Source: Niallia sp. FSL W8-0635 (GTDB lineage Bacteria; Bacillota; Bacilli; Bacillales; Cytobacillaceae). Taken from it: 64,000 bases of DNA. Position numbers and translations under genes: made by a program. Below the pieces are notes generated by a model. The model had not been told where the DNA came from, searched no databases, and was given only the letters and a program-made list of their open reading frames with translations. Position 1 is the stretch's first letter; every line of letters starts with the position of its first letter. This document shows, in pieces, positions 1,577 to 61,082 of this stretch. The DNA is taken from the NCBI RefSeq assembly GCF_038007965.1, contig NZ_JBBOYD010000001.1, forward strand, positions 2,954,501-3,018,500, read 5' to 3'.

Positions 1577-1648
1577 TGGGCTATAGCCAAGTGGTAAGGC
1601 AACGGACTTTGACTCCGTCACTCGTTGGTTCGAATCCAGCTAGCCCAG
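1577..1648 (+). tRNA. tRNA-Gln (anticodon TTG)
   Basis: A 72-nt cloverleaf. The acceptor arms are TGGGCTA (1577-1583) and TAGCCCA (1641-1647) with discriminator G1648. The anticodon arm is ACGGA/TCCGT with loop CTTTGAC, giving anticodon TTG, and the T-arm contains GGTTCGAATCC. The U1-A72 closing pair is typical of glutamine tRNAs. The 3' CCA is not encoded, so it must be added after transcription. It is a single-gene unit followed directly by a terminator. Confidence 0.96.
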
Positions 1649-3787: not shown

Positions 3788-3831
3788 AAAAGATAGAAGG
3801 GACTATTTTAACCCCTTCTATCTTTTCTTTT
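3788..3831 (+). terminator. Intrinsic terminator of the 3087-3785 regulator gene
   Basis: A 14-bp stem AAAAGATAGAAGGG / CCCTTCTATCTTTT (3788-3801 and 3813-3826) is followed by a T-rich tract. The T tract is where a repeat element has inserted. Confidence 0.85.
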
Positions 3832-4040
3832 GGCTGTTTATGTAAAGTTTGTTGCTATGATCCGCAGCCTGAATACACTCCGCTTTCCGTGGGGCTCGCG
3901 CTGAGCCGCTTCGGCTTCGCCTGCAGGGTCTCAGGCTGTCTCGCTAATCCCACAGGAGTCTACGTGTATTCAGGCTGCTCCATTTTTCTCATTAATTGAT
4001 TTTTTCTATTGAGAAAGCAACAATCTTTTAGAAAACAGCC
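3832..4040. mobile_element. MITE-like repeat, copy 1 (GGCTGTTT ends, GC-rich palindromic core)
   Basis: A 209-bp element. The ends GGCTGTTT and AAACAGCC begin about 25-bp imperfect terminal inverted repeats (20 of 25 matching). It is flanked by the perfect 8-bp direct repeat TTTCTTTT (3824-3831 and 4041-4048), although that sequence is low complexity. The core at 3864-3978 is GC-rich, unlike the surrounding DNA, and its arms GCAGCCTGAATACAC / GTGTATTCAGGCTGC pair perfectly over 15 bp. No transposase is encoded. Short open frames across it (CxPQPEYT type) are artefacts of the repeat. Confidence 0.85.
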
Positions 4041-4058
4041 TTTCTTTTTAATGCTAGC

Positions 4059-7679: not shown

Positions 7680-7764
7680 ATGATCACTTCCTCTCTCTAT
7701 TTATATATGAATCCCTTTTAAAAAACATGCTTACAAGCGTATTCCCATTAGCATTTTAAAATAT

Positions 7765-7962
7765 AGCTGTTTTCGTAAAATTGTTGCTATGACCCGCAGC
7801 CTGAATACACTTCGCTTTCCATGGGGCGAGCGGTGAGCCTCCTCAGCTTCGCCTCCGGGGTCTCACCTGTCTCGCTAATCCCATAAGAGCCTACGAGTAT
7901 TCAGGCTGCTCAGATTTCCTCATTAATCTATTGAGAAAGCAACAATCTTTTAGAAAACAGCC
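7765..7962. mobile_element. MITE-like repeat, copy 2
   Basis: A 198-bp relative of the 3832 element in the same orientation. The left end is AGCTGTTTTC (first G changed to A) and the right end GAAAACAGCC. The flanking octamers are TAAAATAT (7757-7764) and TATAATAT (7963-7970), a 7/8 match. The GC-rich core 7796-7909 begins GCAGCCTGAATACAC and ends TATTCAGGCTGC, with one arm substitution. No coding capacity. Confidence 0.82.
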
Positions 7963-7975
7963 TATAATATACATA

Positions 7976-21704: not shown

Positions 21705-22140
21705 AAGGCTGGGACAAAACTAAATAACCACTCTGAAAAGACAAACAACCTCTATTTTAGCTCTTAAATAAAGGCTAGTTTTTCATACTAGTTATTTATG
21801 ATTTTAAATATAATCAGTGTAAAAACTAATTCGTTTTTAAAGATGTTTTTCTATAAAATATTATGGAAATAGAAAACATTAATTAATTGGAAAGACGGAG
21901 CAGCCTGAATACACGTAGACTCCTATGGGAGCTGCGAGAAAGTCCGAGACCCTGCAGGAACGCAGTGACGAAGCGGCTCGGCGCTCGCCCCATGGAAAGC
22001 GAAGTGTATTCAGGCTGCGGATATTAACACTAATCTTACTGAAACTGACTTTTATAAAACTAATTAAGACCCGAACAATTATGAATTTCTTCATATTTGT
22101 TCGGGTTTATCTATGTATGGAATACTTATGTCCCAGCCTT
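21705..22140. mobile_element. Composite 436-bp repeat element with AAGGCTGGGACA ends
   Basis: The ends AAGGCTGGGACA (21705-21716) and TGTCCCAGCCTT (22129-22140) are a perfect 12-bp inverted repeat. No direct repeat is visible at the borders. The interior is non-coding and AT-rich, except for the GC-rich palindromic core at 21900-22018 and a terminator-like hairpin at 22066-22108 (CCCGAACAA / TTGTTCGGG). No transposase. Confidence 0.7.
21900..22018. repeat. GC-rich palindromic core, copy 3, inverted and nested in the 21705-22140 element
   Basis: Reads GCAGCCTGAATACAC ... GTGTATTCAGGCTGC with perfect 15-bp arms. Its interior matches the cores at 3864-3978, 7796-7909 and 60906-61020 when read on the opposite strand. 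Homology to copy 1 extends only a few bases beyond the arms (TCC / TCC), after which the sequence is different. Confidence 0.85.
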
Positions 22141-26951: not shown

Positions 26952-29057
26952 TTATTCTTTTTCTTCTTTTTTCTCGTCTTTTTGTCTCTCTTTTTTCAAA
27001 TCGAAATACGCATCCAATACGCGCTCTCCGATTTTTTTATTGGAGCCATTATCGACACTTCCTTGGTATGCCCATGGAACCATCACGGCCATAGCTACTT
27101 CTGGATTATCAGAAGGAGCATAACTAATTAAGCTTAGGTTCATGACTTGAGGAGGTTCTTTTCCATAATCACTTCTAGATGGTCCATCATAAAAGGCCTC
27201 TGCTGTTCCTGTTTTTGCTGCAGGAGAATAATCTTTTCCACCTAAATTAGAATAAGCCGTACCTTTAGGAGTTTGGGCTACCATTTTAAACCCTTGCTGG
27301 ACTCGTTCAATCCATTCAGACTTTACATCAACCTTATTTAATACTTTTGGTTTAATGGTTTCTACAACTGGTCCAAGTGTACTATCATCTGCTACGGGTT
27401 CACGAATTTCTTTTACAATATGTGGTTCCATTCTTTTCCCACCATTAGCGATTGTCGAAACATATTGTGCAAGCTGCATATTGGAATACGTATCATATTG
27501 TCCAATCGATAAATCTAGTAAGAAACCTGGCAGTGTATCTTGTCCTTTAAAACCAACTTGTTCGTTAGGCAAATCAATCCCTGTGCGAATTCCTAATCCA
27601 TACTGAGCAAATTCATTTCTAACTAAGGAGAAGTCACTTAGCTGTACAGACAATGGTTGACCATATACATAATTTGCACCAGCCATCTTCATCACTGTAC
27701 GGAACATATAAACGTTAGAAGATCGTTGTAATGCAGTGAGATCATTAATCGGTCCCATTGTTGTCCAAGATTTCTTAATTGTGTTTCCTATTTTTACAGG
27801 TGTATCATTCCAGACTGTTCCAGGGGAAATAGCTCCTGTTTTATATCCAGTTAATACAGTTGCACCCTTTACAACAGAACCTACATTGTATGTTGTTGTA
27901 ATATTACCAAGTGCATCATCTTGAACTTCTAACTTTCCAGTTTTCTCATTTCTTACTAGTCGCTTTCCTGCCATGGACAGAACATCACCTGTATTAGGAT
28001 TCATTAAAACGACATAGGCTCTATCAAGTAATTTCGTGCCAGCAAAGGTTTTCGCTGTTTTTAATTCTTCCTCGATGATTTTTTCCACTTCTAATTGAAG
28101 CTCCATATCAATAGAAAGAACTAAATCATTCCCTCGTTTCCCTTCTGTAATGACCTCTGTACTTACGATATTGCCTTTTTTATCTGTTTTATTACGAATT
28201 TTTTCTTTTTGCCCTTTAAGAACATCTTCGTATTGTAGTTCTAGGTAACTTGTCCCTACTCGATCATTCCGGCTATATCCTCTTGAAACATAATAATCTA
28301 ATTTCTCTGCCGGCAATCCTCTTTCAGCAGAACTCACATTACCTAACACAGATTTTAATGTATCACCGAATGCATAGGATCTTTCCCAGTCAGTTGTTGT
28401 ATCAACACCTGGTAAAGATTCTAAATTCTCACTAACTACCGCAAACTCCTTGTCACTCACATCTTTATTTTTAACCATTTGCGGGGTTAGTTTATATCCG
28501 CTAATAAACTCACGATAAATGGCTAACACTTCTAAATCATGATTAGAAAGTGAATTTATATCTTCTTCTGTAATACGATCAAGCTGTAATTGATACACTT
28601 CAGTATTATATTCGTCTTGATCTGGATACTTCTCTGCTAAAGCTTCTTTTTCCTTATCAGAGACCTTCTTATTAGCCTTTTCTTCATTTTTTATAATCCA
28701 ATAATCCTTTTTCTCACGCTCTGTTACCTTTTTTGTATCTTTCATAATATACTTTGAAAGCAACTCCGCTGTTTCGAGCATCTCTTCTTGCTTCACTCCA
28801 GAATTTGTATATGTAATTGCTTTTTGCGCAACATTATCCACAATTACTTTTCCAGTAGCATCATACATTTTCCCACGGGGCACAGAGGTATTTACTGTAA
28901 CATCTTCTGTTTTCTCCAATTCTCTTTTATAATCCTCTCCATAAACAATCTGCACAAATCCTAATCGCAGAATTAAGGCCGAAAATAATAAAAAGACAAA
29001 AAAGAAAATAATATTAAGACGTACAGGTATTGTTTTTTTCTTTTTCTTTTTTCCCAA
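26952..29057 (-). CDS. pbpA: Class B penicillin-binding protein 2 (PbpA-type), copy A
   Basis: 701-residue transpeptidase of the PBP2 type used in side-wall elongation. A short Lys-rich cytosolic tail and one transmembrane helix precede the dimerisation domain (VPRGKMYDATG). The catalytic domain has SxxK as SVVK (about residue 394), SSN (about 447) and KTG in AKTGTAEAF (about 614). The dimerisation motif reads RGKMYDATG where RGxIYDRxG is usual, unlike copy B. It ends in a Glu/Lys-rich tail. Confidence 0.92.
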   Translation of the reverse strand: MGKKKKKKTIPVRLNIIFFFVFLLFSALILRLGFVQIVYGEDYKRELEKTEDVTVNTSVPRGKMYDATGKVIVDNVAQKAITYTNSGVKQEEMLETAELLSKYIMKDTKKVTEREKKDYWIIKNEEKANKKVSDKEKEALAEKYPDQDEYNTEVYQLQLDRITEEDINSLSNHDLEVLAIYREFISGYKLTPQMVKNKDVSDKEFAVVSENLESLPGVDTTTDWERSYAFGDTLKSVLGNVSSAERGLPAEKLDYYVSRGYSRNDRVGTSYLELQYEDVLKGQKEKIRNKTDKKGNIVSTEVITEGKRGNDLVLSIDMELQLEVEKIIEEELKTAKTFAGTKLLDRAYVVLMNPNTGDVLSMAGKRLVRNEKTGKLEVQDDALGNITTTYNVGSVVKGATVLTGYKTGAISPGTVWNDTPVKIGNTIKKSWTTMGPINDLTALQRSSNVYMFRTVMKMAGANYVYGQPLSVQLSDFSLVRNEFAQYGLGIRTGIDLPNEQVGFKGQDTLPGFLLDLSIGQYDTYSNMQLAQYVSTIANGGKRMEPHIVKEIREPVADDSTLGPVVETIKPKVLNKVDVKSEWIERVQQGFKMVAQTPKGTAYSNLGGKDYSPAAKTGTAEAFYDGPSRSDYGKEPPQVMNLSLISYAPSDNPEVAMAVMVPWAYQGSVDNGSNKKIGERVLDAYFDLKKERQKDEKKEEKE

Positions 29058-29323: not shown

Positions 29324-31438
29324 CTAGTCTTTTTCTTTCTTTAATTCAAAATATTTATCCATTACACGTTTACCGATAGTTAAGTTTGGCGAAGGACCAT
29401 TACTTGTTGTGTAGACCCAAGGAACCATTACTGCCATTGCTACTTCTGGATTATCAGAAGGTGCGTAAGTAATCAAACTAAGATTCATAACCTCGGGTGG
29501 CGGAGTATCAAAATTGGTTCTTAATGGACCATCATAAAACGCCTGTGCGGTACCAGTCTTACCGGCTGGGCTATACGGGGCACCTACAAATACTCCACCT
29601 GTTCCACCTGGTTGCATTACCATACGGAATCCTCTTTGTACTTGTTCTATCCATCCTGGTTGTAAATCCAGTTTATTTAGAACCTTAGGTTGAATTTCTT
29701 GAACTATTGGACCTAACTTCTCATCTCCTTGGCCTGGTTCTCTTATTTCTTTTAGGAGTCGTGGCTGTATCCGATAGCCACCATTAGCAATAGTCGCAGC
29801 ATATTGTGCTAGTTGCATATTTGTGTATGTATCATATTGTCCGATTGATAAGAACATTAAATTACCTGGTACTGTTGTGTCTTGCCCTTTAAATCCAGCC
29901 ATTTCATTTGGCAAATCAATTCCAGTTCTAACACCTAAACCAAACTCGCTAAAGGAATTTCTAATTTTATTCCATGCAGCTGGATCCACGTTCAAAGTTT
30001 GTCCAGGAGTTGTATAGCTTTCCTTTCCAATCGCTAGTGCAATCTTTGCCATATATACGTTAGATGATAATTTTAAAGCAGTTAAATCGTTCATGTTTCC
30101 CCATAATCGACTTGAATAAGATTTAAAATCTGGTGAATCCTTGATTTTAATAACTTCATCTCTTAACAGGGAGCCAGGACGAATAACGCCTACTTTATAA
30201 CCCGTTAGTACCATAGCTCCTTTGACCGCTGATCCAACATTATATGAAGTTGTAATATTGCCTAACGCAAAATCTTGGACAACTTGGTTTCCGGTTTTCT
30301 CATCTTTTCCTAACTGCTTACCTGCCATTGTTAAAACTTCACCTGTATGTGGATCCATCAGTACAACAAACGCTCGATCTAAATAATGGGTACCAGCATA
30401 GCCATATTTCGTTCTTTTCAATTCTTCTTCAATGATTTTCTCAACTTCCAACTGTAATTTCATATCGATCGTTAATACTAAATCATTTCCAGCCGATCCA
30501 TCAGATAAAATTTCCGAGCCAACAATTTCATCTGTTTTATCTTTAATATATTTGACCTTTTTCTTTTGACCTTTTAAAACATCCTCATACTGTTTTTCTA
30601 AATAGCTTAGGCCAACTCTATCGTTCATGCTGTAGCCCTTTGCTAAATAGCTATCTTTTTGTTCTGCAGGAACACCTCTTTGTGAAGTACTTACATTTCC
30701 TAACACAGTTTTTAATGTGGATCCAAATTCATACTTTCTATCCCAATCTCGAAGGGTGTCTACACCAGGTAATCTTTCTAAGTTTTCACTAATAATAGCT
30801 ATTTCCTTATCAGTAACTCCTTCATTTTTTACAATATGAGGAGTATAAAAATAACCACTTTGAAACTCTCGATATATCGCTAATGTTTCCATATCTAAAT
30901 CTGTTAGTTTATTTAAATCTGTTTCAGATATCCGATTACGCAATAGTTCATCATATGCTTTTTGATATTCCTTTTTGTCATCCTTATACTTTAGTTCAAG
31001 CTGTTCATTTTCTTCTTCTGATATTTTTGATTTTGCTTCATCCGGATTTATTAAAATCCAATAATCCTTCTTGTCTCTTTCTGATATCTTTTTAAGATCT
31101 TTTTCACTGTCCATCTTAATTATTTTCGCCAACTCTTCAGCGGTATCTCGCATTTCTTTTGGCGTATACTTTTTCCAATTAGTATATGTAATGGCATTTT
31201 TGCCAACATTGCTTACAATACTTTGACCTGTTCTATCATAGATTTCTCCCCTAGGAACAGAGGTGCTAATAACAACATCCTCTTTTTTCTCTACTTCTTT
31301 TTTATAGTCATCTCCATACACAATTTGTACAAAGCCTAATCTTAAAATGAGTGCTGAAAACAATAAAAATACCGTAAAGAATATAAGGTTTACTCTTAAA
31401 GGTATTGGATTTCTCTTCTTCTTCTTTTTTTCCCCCAT
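29324..31438 (-). CDS. pbpA: Class B penicillin-binding protein 2 (PbpA-type), copy B
   Basis: 704 residues, clearly paralogous to the 26952 gene along the whole length: near-identical transmembrane segment and LRLGFVQIVYG, GQYDTYTNMQLAQY and APSDNPEVAMAVMVPW segments. Catalytic motifs are SAVK (about 403), SSN (about 458) and GKTGTAQAF (about 625). The dimerisation motif RGEIYDRTG is canonical. Tandem duplication at the position where B. subtilis has one pbpA. Confidence 0.92.
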   Translation of the reverse strand: MGEKKKKKRNPIPLRVNLIFFTVFLLFSALILRLGFVQIVYGDDYKKEVEKKEDVVISTSVPRGEIYDRTGQSIVSNVGKNAITYTNWKKYTPKEMRDTAEELAKIIKMDSEKDLKKISERDKKDYWILINPDEAKSKISEEENEQLELKYKDDKKEYQKAYDELLRNRISETDLNKLTDLDMETLAIYREFQSGYFYTPHIVKNEGVTDKEIAIISENLERLPGVDTLRDWDRKYEFGSTLKTVLGNVSTSQRGVPAEQKDSYLAKGYSMNDRVGLSYLEKQYEDVLKGQKKKVKYIKDKTDEIVGSEILSDGSAGNDLVLTIDMKLQLEVEKIIEEELKRTKYGYAGTHYLDRAFVVLMDPHTGEVLTMAGKQLGKDEKTGNQVVQDFALGNITTSYNVGSAVKGAMVLTGYKVGVIRPGSLLRDEVIKIKDSPDFKSYSSRLWGNMNDLTALKLSSNVYMAKIALAIGKESYTTPGQTLNVDPAAWNKIRNSFSEFGLGVRTGIDLPNEMAGFKGQDTTVPGNLMFLSIGQYDTYTNMQLAQYAATIANGGYRIQPRLLKEIREPGQGDEKLGPIVQEIQPKVLNKLDLQPGWIEQVQRGFRMVMQPGGTGGVFVGAPYSPAGKTGTAQAFYDGPLRTNFDTPPPEVMNLSLITYAPSDNPEVAMAVMVPWVYTTSNGPSPNLTIGKRVMDKYFELKKEKD

Positions 31439-60704: not shown

Positions 60705-60873
60705 TCATTTCTTTTTAACTGTTTTTCATTCATTTCTATCAATTACAAATAGCTATTGAAAAGGTTATTCTTCTGTCCATTGGATTGTTCTGTAGACATT
60801 CTTCAACAAACTTTATTTTAAAATAATATTCTCACATGGTCCCTTTATAGTGCTGCAATTTACTTTAAAGAAA

Positions 60874-61082
60874 GGCTGTTTTCGTAAAGTTTGTTGCTAT
60901 TACCCGCAACCGGAATACACTTCGCTTTCCGTGGGGCTCGCGCTTAAGCCTCCTCAGCTTCGCCTCCGGGGTCTCAGACTGTCTCGCAATCCCCGTGGCG
61001 ACTACGTGTATTCCGGCTGCTCCATTACTTCAACTAACTCTTTTCTCCTATTGAAAAAACAATAATCTTTTAGAAAACAGCC
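60874..61082. mobile_element. MITE-like repeat, copy 4 of the core (third GGCTGTTT-bordered copy)
   Basis: A 209-bp element with ends GGCTGTTTTC / GAAAACAGCC (perfect over 10 bp) and a clean 8-bp direct repeat TAAAGAAA at 60866-60873 and 61083-61090. The core 60906-61020 starts GCAACCGGAATACAC and ends GTGTATTCCGGCTGC, with a compensating change (CTG to CGG on both arms). It lies in the otherwise gene-free 60696-61341 gap between cdd and dgkA. Confidence 0.88.

What the first reader, a model, noticed from the sequence alone, without database searches (positions are those of the whole stretch)
3824..4048. GC-rich miniature transposable element with terminal inverted repeats and 8-bp direct repeats
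Copy 1 (3832-4040), copy 2 (7765-7962) and copy 4 (60874-61082) share GGCTGTTT...AAACAGCC ends, about 25-bp imperfect inverted repeats and a GC-rich palindromic core. Their borders carry direct repeats of 8 bp: TTTCTTTT, TAAAATAT/TATAATAT (7/8) and TAAAGAAA. This points to transposition with 8-bp target duplication, so these are non-autonomous mobile elements rather than passive REP-like palindromes. Eight-bp duplications are known in families such as ISL3, IS256 and IS66; the parent transposase is not in the window. The strongly folded core could form a large RNA or cruciform hairpin.
Basis: partly seen in the sequence, partly recalled or inferred. Interest (0 to 1): 0.72.

Follow-up and report, generated by a model that had tools for sequence, protein, structure and literature searches.

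The report
Mobile mini-transposon carrying a widespread hairpin
The repeats are small non-autonomous transposons of a Bacillus-like bacterium, most likely moved by a known transposase family, and their GC-rich middle is a conserved folded hairpin that also turns up, in other settings, in many relatives and inside a catalogued Staphylococcus small RNA.

Summary
Observation confirmed. Window copies 3832-4040, 7765-7962 and 60874-61082 are MITEs with flanking octamers; a diverged fourth copy lies at 21868-22045. In the host genome (Niallia-like Bacillaceae) 14 of 21 elements with two recognisable ends have perfect 8-bp direct repeats, none of 5-7 or 9-11 bp. The parent is the IS1595 family, not ISL3: IS1595 elements in relatives have the same ends and perfect octamers, and the host's only IS1595 transposase match is a decayed copy between such ends. 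That part is a new member of a known kind.

The core is more surprising. The same ~110-nt hairpin occurs in 77 of 299 genomes of the class, 25 of 119 genera: inside two IS1595 end types, in a third frame that often duplicates terminators, and stand-alone. It shows strong covariation, a strand bias in wobble pairs, and is the core of Rfam tsr24, an S. aureus small RNA. I read it as an independently evolving structured module, probably acting as RNA, carried by several transposon types. Its function and own mobility are untested.

The parts
3832..4040 (.). MITE copy 1 (209 bp), GGCTGTTTATG...AAAACAGCC
3824..3831 (.). left 8-bp direct repeat TTTCTTTT
4041..4048 (.). right 8-bp direct repeat TTTCTTTT
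3864..3971 (-). hairpin core of copy 1 (model R1 match, 110.3 bits)
7765..7962 (.). MITE copy 2 (198 bp), left end AGCTG
7757..7764 (.). left octamer TAAAATAT
7963..7970 (.). right octamer TATAATAT (7/8)
7796..7902 (-). hairpin core of copy 2 (R1, 103.3 bits)
21868..22045 (-). diverged copy (the fourth in the window); no octamer pair identified
21907..22018 (+). hairpin core of the diverged copy (R1, 110.0 bits)
60874..61082 (.).
60866..60873 (.). left 8-bp direct repeat TAAAGAAA
61083..61090 (.). right 8-bp direct repeat TAAAGAAA
60906..61013 (-). hairpin core of this copy (R1, 67.2 bits; its minimum-energy fold departs from the consensus)

Best explanation
A composite of two things. (1) The frame is an IS1595-family MITE: a DDE transposase of an IS1595 element with the same ~25-bp ends binds them in trans, excises the element and inserts it into an A+T-rich target with an 8-bp duplication. 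In the host the only helper found is a decayed 1142-bp copy, so today's copies are probably stranded (inference). (2) The ~110-nt GC-rich core is not transposase debris. It is an independently conserved hairpin module of the class Bacilli, under selection to pair on one strand (5'-GACTCCTG...GGAAAGCG-3', the minus strand of the three main window copies) and therefore most likely acting as RNA. It is carried as a passenger by several different transposon frames and also occurs stand-alone. Shown: ends, duplications, IS1595 elements with the same ends, the core in several frames, covariation, strand bias, match to tsr24. Inferred: mobilisation in trans, transcription in this host, any benefit of the hairpin.
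For: MITE: 14 of 21 perfect octamers, T at position 1 in 11 of 14, A at position 8 in 12 of 14. IS1595 elements with this end type and 8/8 octamers at 9 of 43 loci scanned (L096, L099, L102, L104, L109, L111, L129, L131, L132); the last three share length and octamer, so probably one inherited insertion. The right end of copy 1 is 25/25 identical to that of L111. Transposases of L111 and L109 match PF12762 (E 8e-16, 5e-16). The host's single PF12762 match lies in L042:1607-2748, between such ends with 7/8 octamers. Two 1969-bp copies with an IS110-family element in the core are 99.4% identical over 1972 columns but have different perfect octamers, TTTCTATA and AATCGGTA, so these ends appear to have moved cargo as one unit. 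Copy-1 and copy-2 sites lack the element in N. circulans NBRC 13626. Core: 77 of 299 class genomes; 95.0% of cells paired against 81.0% shuffled, 277 double-change cells against 72, 0 of 500 shuffles; outside one conserved U.G pair (46 of 58), GU/UG 49 against AC/CA 14 in 58 non-redundant copies; the same strand folds more stably in 4 of 4 window copies; R1 matches 16 of 16 tsr24 loci, 15 strongly.
Against: No transposition was observed and no intact helper was found in the host. 4 of 21 elements have under 7/8 octamer match. The empty-site comparison is at about 80% identity: the junction is approximate, and at copy 2 the octamer itself is not recognisable. The core gave no match in 14 IS1595 elements tested, so how it entered the frame is unknown. 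The strand test uses an alignment fitted to a model built on that strand, and T.G also pairs better than A.C in single-stranded DNA (recalled), so it does not prove RNA. The shuffles do not keep relatedness (tool's caveat). The weak tsr24 matches on cores (4 of 9 loci; 1 of 12) stand beside chance-like matches of similar E-value; the firm link is. I had no transcript data. 222 of 299 class genomes had no core match at the threshold.
Confidence: 0.85

Rival explanations
1. The core is itself mobile, REP-like: a single-stranded DNA hairpin moved by its own (HUH/Y1-type) enzyme, which lands in MITEs and intergenic DNA alike.
For: Stand-alone copies with extended arms such as GATTGGAGCGG...CGGAAATC in several genera; such hairpins nested inside IS1595 ends in L077 and L091 (by eye); tandem arrays in L090 and L174.
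Against: No associated enzyme gene was searched for or met. Duplications at stand-alone copies were not tested systematically; the 8-bp scan flagged 8/8 octamers at L073 and L076, which I judge internal repeat and chance. Own-genome orientation is even (21 plus, 23 minus on C1). At about 110 nt it exceeds the 20-40 bp given for REPs (PMC3733652, abstract start in the listing).
Confidence: 0.3
2. The core is only an insulator: any stable hairpin protects host transcripts, and sequence conservation reflects recent spread.
For: By a crude ORF call none of 27 own copies lies inside an ORF of 90 aa or more, and 11 lie between convergent genes (L020 overlaps an ORF by 43 bases).
Against: Compensatory changes across non-redundant copies with near-invariant loop residues; by eye no T-run follows the core on strand B in the listed copies, so it is not an intrinsic terminator.
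Confidence: 0.2
3. The MITE derives from ISL3, IS256 or IS66.
Against: Matching ends with 8/8 octamers surround IS1595 transposases; the host's one ISL3 match is a fragment with no matching ends listed near it. IS256 and IS66 were not searched for.
Confidence: 0.02
4. The octamers are pre-existing low-complexity sequence.
For: Targets are A+T-rich, and mispaired flanks reach 7/8 in 49 of 2000 draws.
Against: 14 of 21 perfect at exactly 8 bp and 0 at neighbouring lengths; a single T-rich tract at the empty copy-1 site.
Confidence: 0.01

Closest known systems
IS1595 family insertion sequences (DDE_Tnp_IS1595)
   Same: Same ends as IS1595 elements found here, beginning GG; A+T-rich 8-bp duplications.
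   Different: No transposase; the internal sequence is a hairpin not found in 14 IS1595 elements tested.
bcr1 of the Bacillus cereus group, and other bacterial MITEs
   Same: Dispersed short non-coding repeats with mobile-element features (PMC6542083 and PMC3733652, passages).
   Different: [quoted passage not shown] sequences were not compared here.
Rfam RF02577 tsr24 (S. aureus small RNA)
   Same: In L182 the shared blocks AGACTCCTG.GGGA...CCC..GGAAAGCG lie on the same strand; R1 matches all 16 tsr24 loci taken.
   Different: tsr24 is 238 positions with other flanking sequence; host-genome cores do not match it (0 in G000).
REP elements as insertion-sequence targets
   Same: An IS110-family element sits in the near-invariant GACTCCT motif, as some insertion sequences do in REPs (PMC1525189 abstract).
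   Different: Much longer, with conserved internal loops; no REP-associated transposase shown.
Bhal-1, a 74-bp stem-loop family of B. halodurans
   Same: Size, setting and host group could fit (PMC2267715 passages).
   Different: Its sequence was not seen, so identity is undecided.

Membership tests
IS1595-derived MITE | ends shared with IS1595 elements that encode a transposase | tested here: met
IS1595-derived MITE | 8-bp target duplication | tested here: met
   14 of 21 perfect at 8 bp, 0 at 5-7 and 9-11
IS1595-derived MITE | no transposase gene inside | tested here: met
   no ORF of 100 aa or more over the three copies
IS1595-derived MITE | mobilised in trans by an IS1595 transposase | not testable with these tools
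   needs a transposition assay
IS1595 family (the presumed parents) | DDE_Tnp_IS1595 domain | tested here: met
   PF12762 over its cut-off in L111, L109, L104 (second of two ORF pieces) and the L042 remnant
IS1595 family (the presumed parents) | N-terminal zinc-ribbon domain | tested here: inconclusive
   PF12760 at 21.3 and 23.5 bits, cut-off 25.4
ISL3-derived MITE | ends shared with an ISL3 element | tested here: not met
   one fragment at C2:233873-234091; the only C2 end-like match is at 288209
tsr24 (RF02577) | score over Rfam's gathering cut-off | tested here: not met
   window: only a tRNA reaches its threshold; G000: 0 matches
tsr24 (RF02577) | shared core hairpin | tested here: met
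   16 of 16 tsr24 loci match R1, 15 at E of 5.1e-6 or less, L221 at 0.04
REP/REPIN | association with a REP-type tyrosine transposase | not tested
   no search was made for such an enzyme

The most novel reading that the evidence does not exclude
The core is a structured RNA module of the class Bacilli that persists by hitch-hiking: different transposon frames (two IS1595 end types, a terminator-duplicating frame, the tsr24 repeats) repeatedly acquired it because its RNA does something for the carrier or host, making these 'MITEs' vehicles of a mobile non-coding RNA.
Probability: 0.3. Interest if true: 0.82.

Novelty: new variant of a known kind. Interest (0 to 1): 0.56.

Why it matters
MITE cores are usually treated as leftover parent DNA. 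Here the core has its own, wider distribution than the transposon ends, with compensatory evolution and a strand preference. It links dispersed repeats in many genera of Bacilli to a catalogued staphylococcal small RNA, which gives a concrete way to ask what such repeats do, and it suggests that these ends can move a 2-kb passenger.

Tried and rejected
ISL3 parent: one fragment only. IS1182 parent for the third frame: the end motif I recalled gave no element-like end pair at 13 PF13751 loci, so that frame is unassigned. Third-frame duplications: 6 of 12 loci share 12 bp or more between flanks against 2 of 132 cross pairs; the other 6 fall below (L158 11 bp, L162 10 bp, the rest 6-8). IS110 insertion at L078: no IS110-like ORF was recognised by eye in the list (no domain search), so the break there is unexplained. 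Rfam: no family at its threshold on the cores taken, apart from a Bacillaceae-1 match that overlaps a weak second core match in L089; weak tsr24 matches led to the link. Global alignments of the full loci with L135 misplaced the gap and were set aside for the joined-flank alignments of the same script. Replication-strand bias: the origin was not located, so only plus/minus counts are given. Literature: no paper describing this element turned up in ten searches of an open-access library; subscription papers and supplements were not seen. Papers were seen as passages, an abstract with outline or listings; none was read whole. Rows dropped: L016, L078 and L082 left out of A1 (25 of the 28 candidates); one search was given 66 loci, not all held; one search kept 58 of 79 rows. 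Only about a dozen candidates per genome were scored, so per-genome counts there are lower bounds.

Full report
What was checked. The three copies are present at the stated coordinates with the stated octamers. They are 209, 198 and 209 bp, 81-84% alike, 48-49% G+C in a 34% G+C window; a fourth, diverged copy lies on the minus strand at 21868-22045. The window is part of a 5.14-Mb genome in 3 contigs. A flanking protein is 95% identical in Bacillus sp. 522_BSPC and 93% in Niallia circulans NBRC 13626, so the host is a Niallia-like Bacillaceae.

The element shows an 8-bp duplication. BLAST gives 44 matching pieces in the host genome. Scanning 59 partly overlapping host loci for two recognisable ends gave 21 elements: 14 with perfect octamers, 3 with 7/8 and 4 with less; none had perfect repeats of 5, 6, 7, 9, 10 or 11 bp; mispaired flanks reached 7/8 in 49 of 2000 draws. 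Of the four low ones, L004, L009 and L043 have ends that look altered or interrupted by eye; L039 (5/8) is unexplained. In N. circulans NBRC 13626 both the copy-1 and the copy-2 site lack the element. At copy 1 a single T-rich tract remains; at copy 2 the octamer is not recognisable; at about 80% identity both junctions are approximate. Copy 1 sits just after an apparent terminator of the upstream ORF (sequence).

The parent is IS1595. A pattern search for the ends led to a 1142-bp element, L042:1607-2748, with matching ends and 7/8 octamers. Inside is a decayed transposase matching PF12762, DDE_Tnp_IS1595 (E 1.7e-11), the only such match in the genome. In 193 genomes of the family, 70 have PF12762 matches. 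A scan for inverted ends plus octamers at 43 loci, some overlapping, found nine elements with the MITE's end type and perfect octamers; three of these (L129, L131, L132) share length and octamer and are probably one inherited insertion. Another group has GGCTCTGTTAAA-like ends, and other loci gave no convincing pair. L111 and L109 encode uninterrupted transposases of 335 and 336 aa; that of L104 is in two ORF pieces. In L111 the right end is 25/25 identical to that of copy 1. The L111 and L109 transposases carry PF12762 and a sub-threshold zinc ribbon; L111 also carries a GNAT acetyltransferase gene. The family is described as usually flanked by 8-bp duplications and carrying this domain, with 5'-GG ends noted for its Merlin relatives (PMC8101967, passages); a member prefers A/T-rich 8-bp repeats (PMC12561309, passages).

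These ends seem able to carry cargo. Two host loci, L031 and L032, hold the MITE with an IS110-family element (PF01548, PF02371) inside the core. They are 99.4% identical over 1972 columns, including both MITE halves, yet have different perfect octamers. The simplest reading is that the 1969-bp composite transposed as a unit. The IS110 element sits within the core's near-invariant GACTCCT motif.

The core has a life of its own. Of 61 genomes (the host and 60 relatives), 48 match the MITE, but in several only query positions around 58-138 match. Among 29 loci read from relatives, seven show the core in the GGCTGTTTTC frame with perfect octamers (L063, L065, L067, L069, L072, L077, L091) and one in a GGCTCTGTTAAA frame (L082, octamer tttttata); a further such frame is L170. 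Most others lack recognisable ends of either type. In two relatives of the same genus the core lies in a third frame; of 12 loci compared (one from another genus), 6 are flanked by direct repeats of 13-40 bp that look like whole terminator hairpins, against 2 of 132 cross pairs reaching 12 bp. The parent of that frame is unassigned. Core-less short derivatives (L053, 68 bp; L045, 83 bp) also exist in the host, and the host copies gave no match beyond the ends and short chance words in 14 IS1595 elements.

The hairpin is under selection. A covariance model from 25 cores finds 45 matches in the host at E of 1e-3 or less and matches in 77 of 299 class genomes, 25 of 119 genera, at E of 1e-6 or less. 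On 79 copies from 66 loci given, 95.0% of cells pair against 81.0% shuffled, 277 cells have double changes against 72, 0 of 500 shuffles reach them, and sliding the partner by 1-3 columns drops pairing to 35-47%. This alignment was fitted to the structure, and the shuffles do not keep relatedness; the first, sequence-only alignment of 25 gives the same picture (93.8 against 83.6%). In 58 copies under 90% alike, one U.G pair is conserved (46 of 58), and elsewhere GU/UG cells outnumber AC/CA cells 49 to 14. Since GU on one strand is AC on the other, this favours pairing on the GACTCCTG...GGAAAGCG strand. That strand also has the lower folding energy in 4 of 4 window copies (z-scores -2.2 to -2.9 against -0.95 to -2.6), although the minimum-energy fold of the 60906-61013 copy departs from the consensus.

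Link to tsr24. In the window no Rfam family reaches its threshold except a tRNA. With lax thresholds, RF02577 tsr24, an S. aureus small RNA, matched the core on the same strand in 4 of 9 loci (E 5e-4, 0.034, 0.16, 0.62) and in 1 of 12 in an earlier call; other, chance-like families scored similar E-values there, so these alone are weak. In L182 the shared blocks are plain. In seven genomes of one genus (f40/g69), tsr24 has 6 to 74 matches each, over its cut-off in five of the seven; it has none in G000, G182 or the 14 control genomes. Model R1 independently matches all 16 tsr24 loci taken, 15 of them at E of 5.1e-6 or less. So tsr24 is a dispersed repeat built on the same hairpin. A transcript map of S. 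aureus reports repeated transcripts near transposases (PMC2873960, passages); I did not tie those to tsr24.

Mechanism. Shown: ends, duplications, IS1595 elements with the same ends, sites without the element, multi-frame core, covariation, strand bias. Inferred: the MITE is mobilised in trans by IS1595 transposase; the core works as RNA; frames acquired it more than once. The rival that the core is itself mobile remains open: hairpins are nested in frames (L077, L091) and arrays exist (L090, L174), but no enzyme was searched for and duplications at stand-alone copies were not tested systematically.

Verdict. The MITE alone is a new member of a known kind. The module it carries makes it a new variant. 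I found no description in ten open-access searches, but Bhal-1 of B. halodurans (PMC2267715, passages) may be a relative whose sequence I could not see.

Noticed in passing
L031:2205-4173 and L032:2064-4032: IS110-family element inside the MITE core, at the near-invariant GACTCCT motif; the composite appears to have transposed as a unit.
   Followed up: partly
L157-L164, L167, L168, L071, L171: The same core in an unassigned transposon frame, flanked at 6 of these 12 loci by duplicated stretches of 13-40 bp that look like terminators.
   Followed up: partly
L090 (989-1840) and L174 (1064-1610): Cores in tandem arrays, four copies spaced about 247 bp and three spaced about 218 bp.
   Followed up: no
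L151:300-490 (contig C2 of the host): A core copy with about 60 bp inserted in the GACTCCT motif, the place where IS110 sits elsewhere (by eye).
   Followed up: no
L111:2189-2716: GNAT acetyltransferase passenger gene inside an IS1595 element.
   Followed up: no
L042:2222-2650: ORF without a Pfam match, lipoprotein-like by eye, inside the decayed IS1595 element of the host.
   Followed up: no
window 27057-27224 and 29402-29569: 168-nt direct repeat, 73% alike, within two neighbouring ORFs of 701 and 704 aa, probably paralogues.
   Followed up: no
window 1577-1648: tRNA gene.
   Followed up: no
L089:1713-1850: A weaker core match (1713-1826) overlaps a Bacillaceae-1 RNA match (1785-1850) downstream of a strong core copy.
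   Followed up: no
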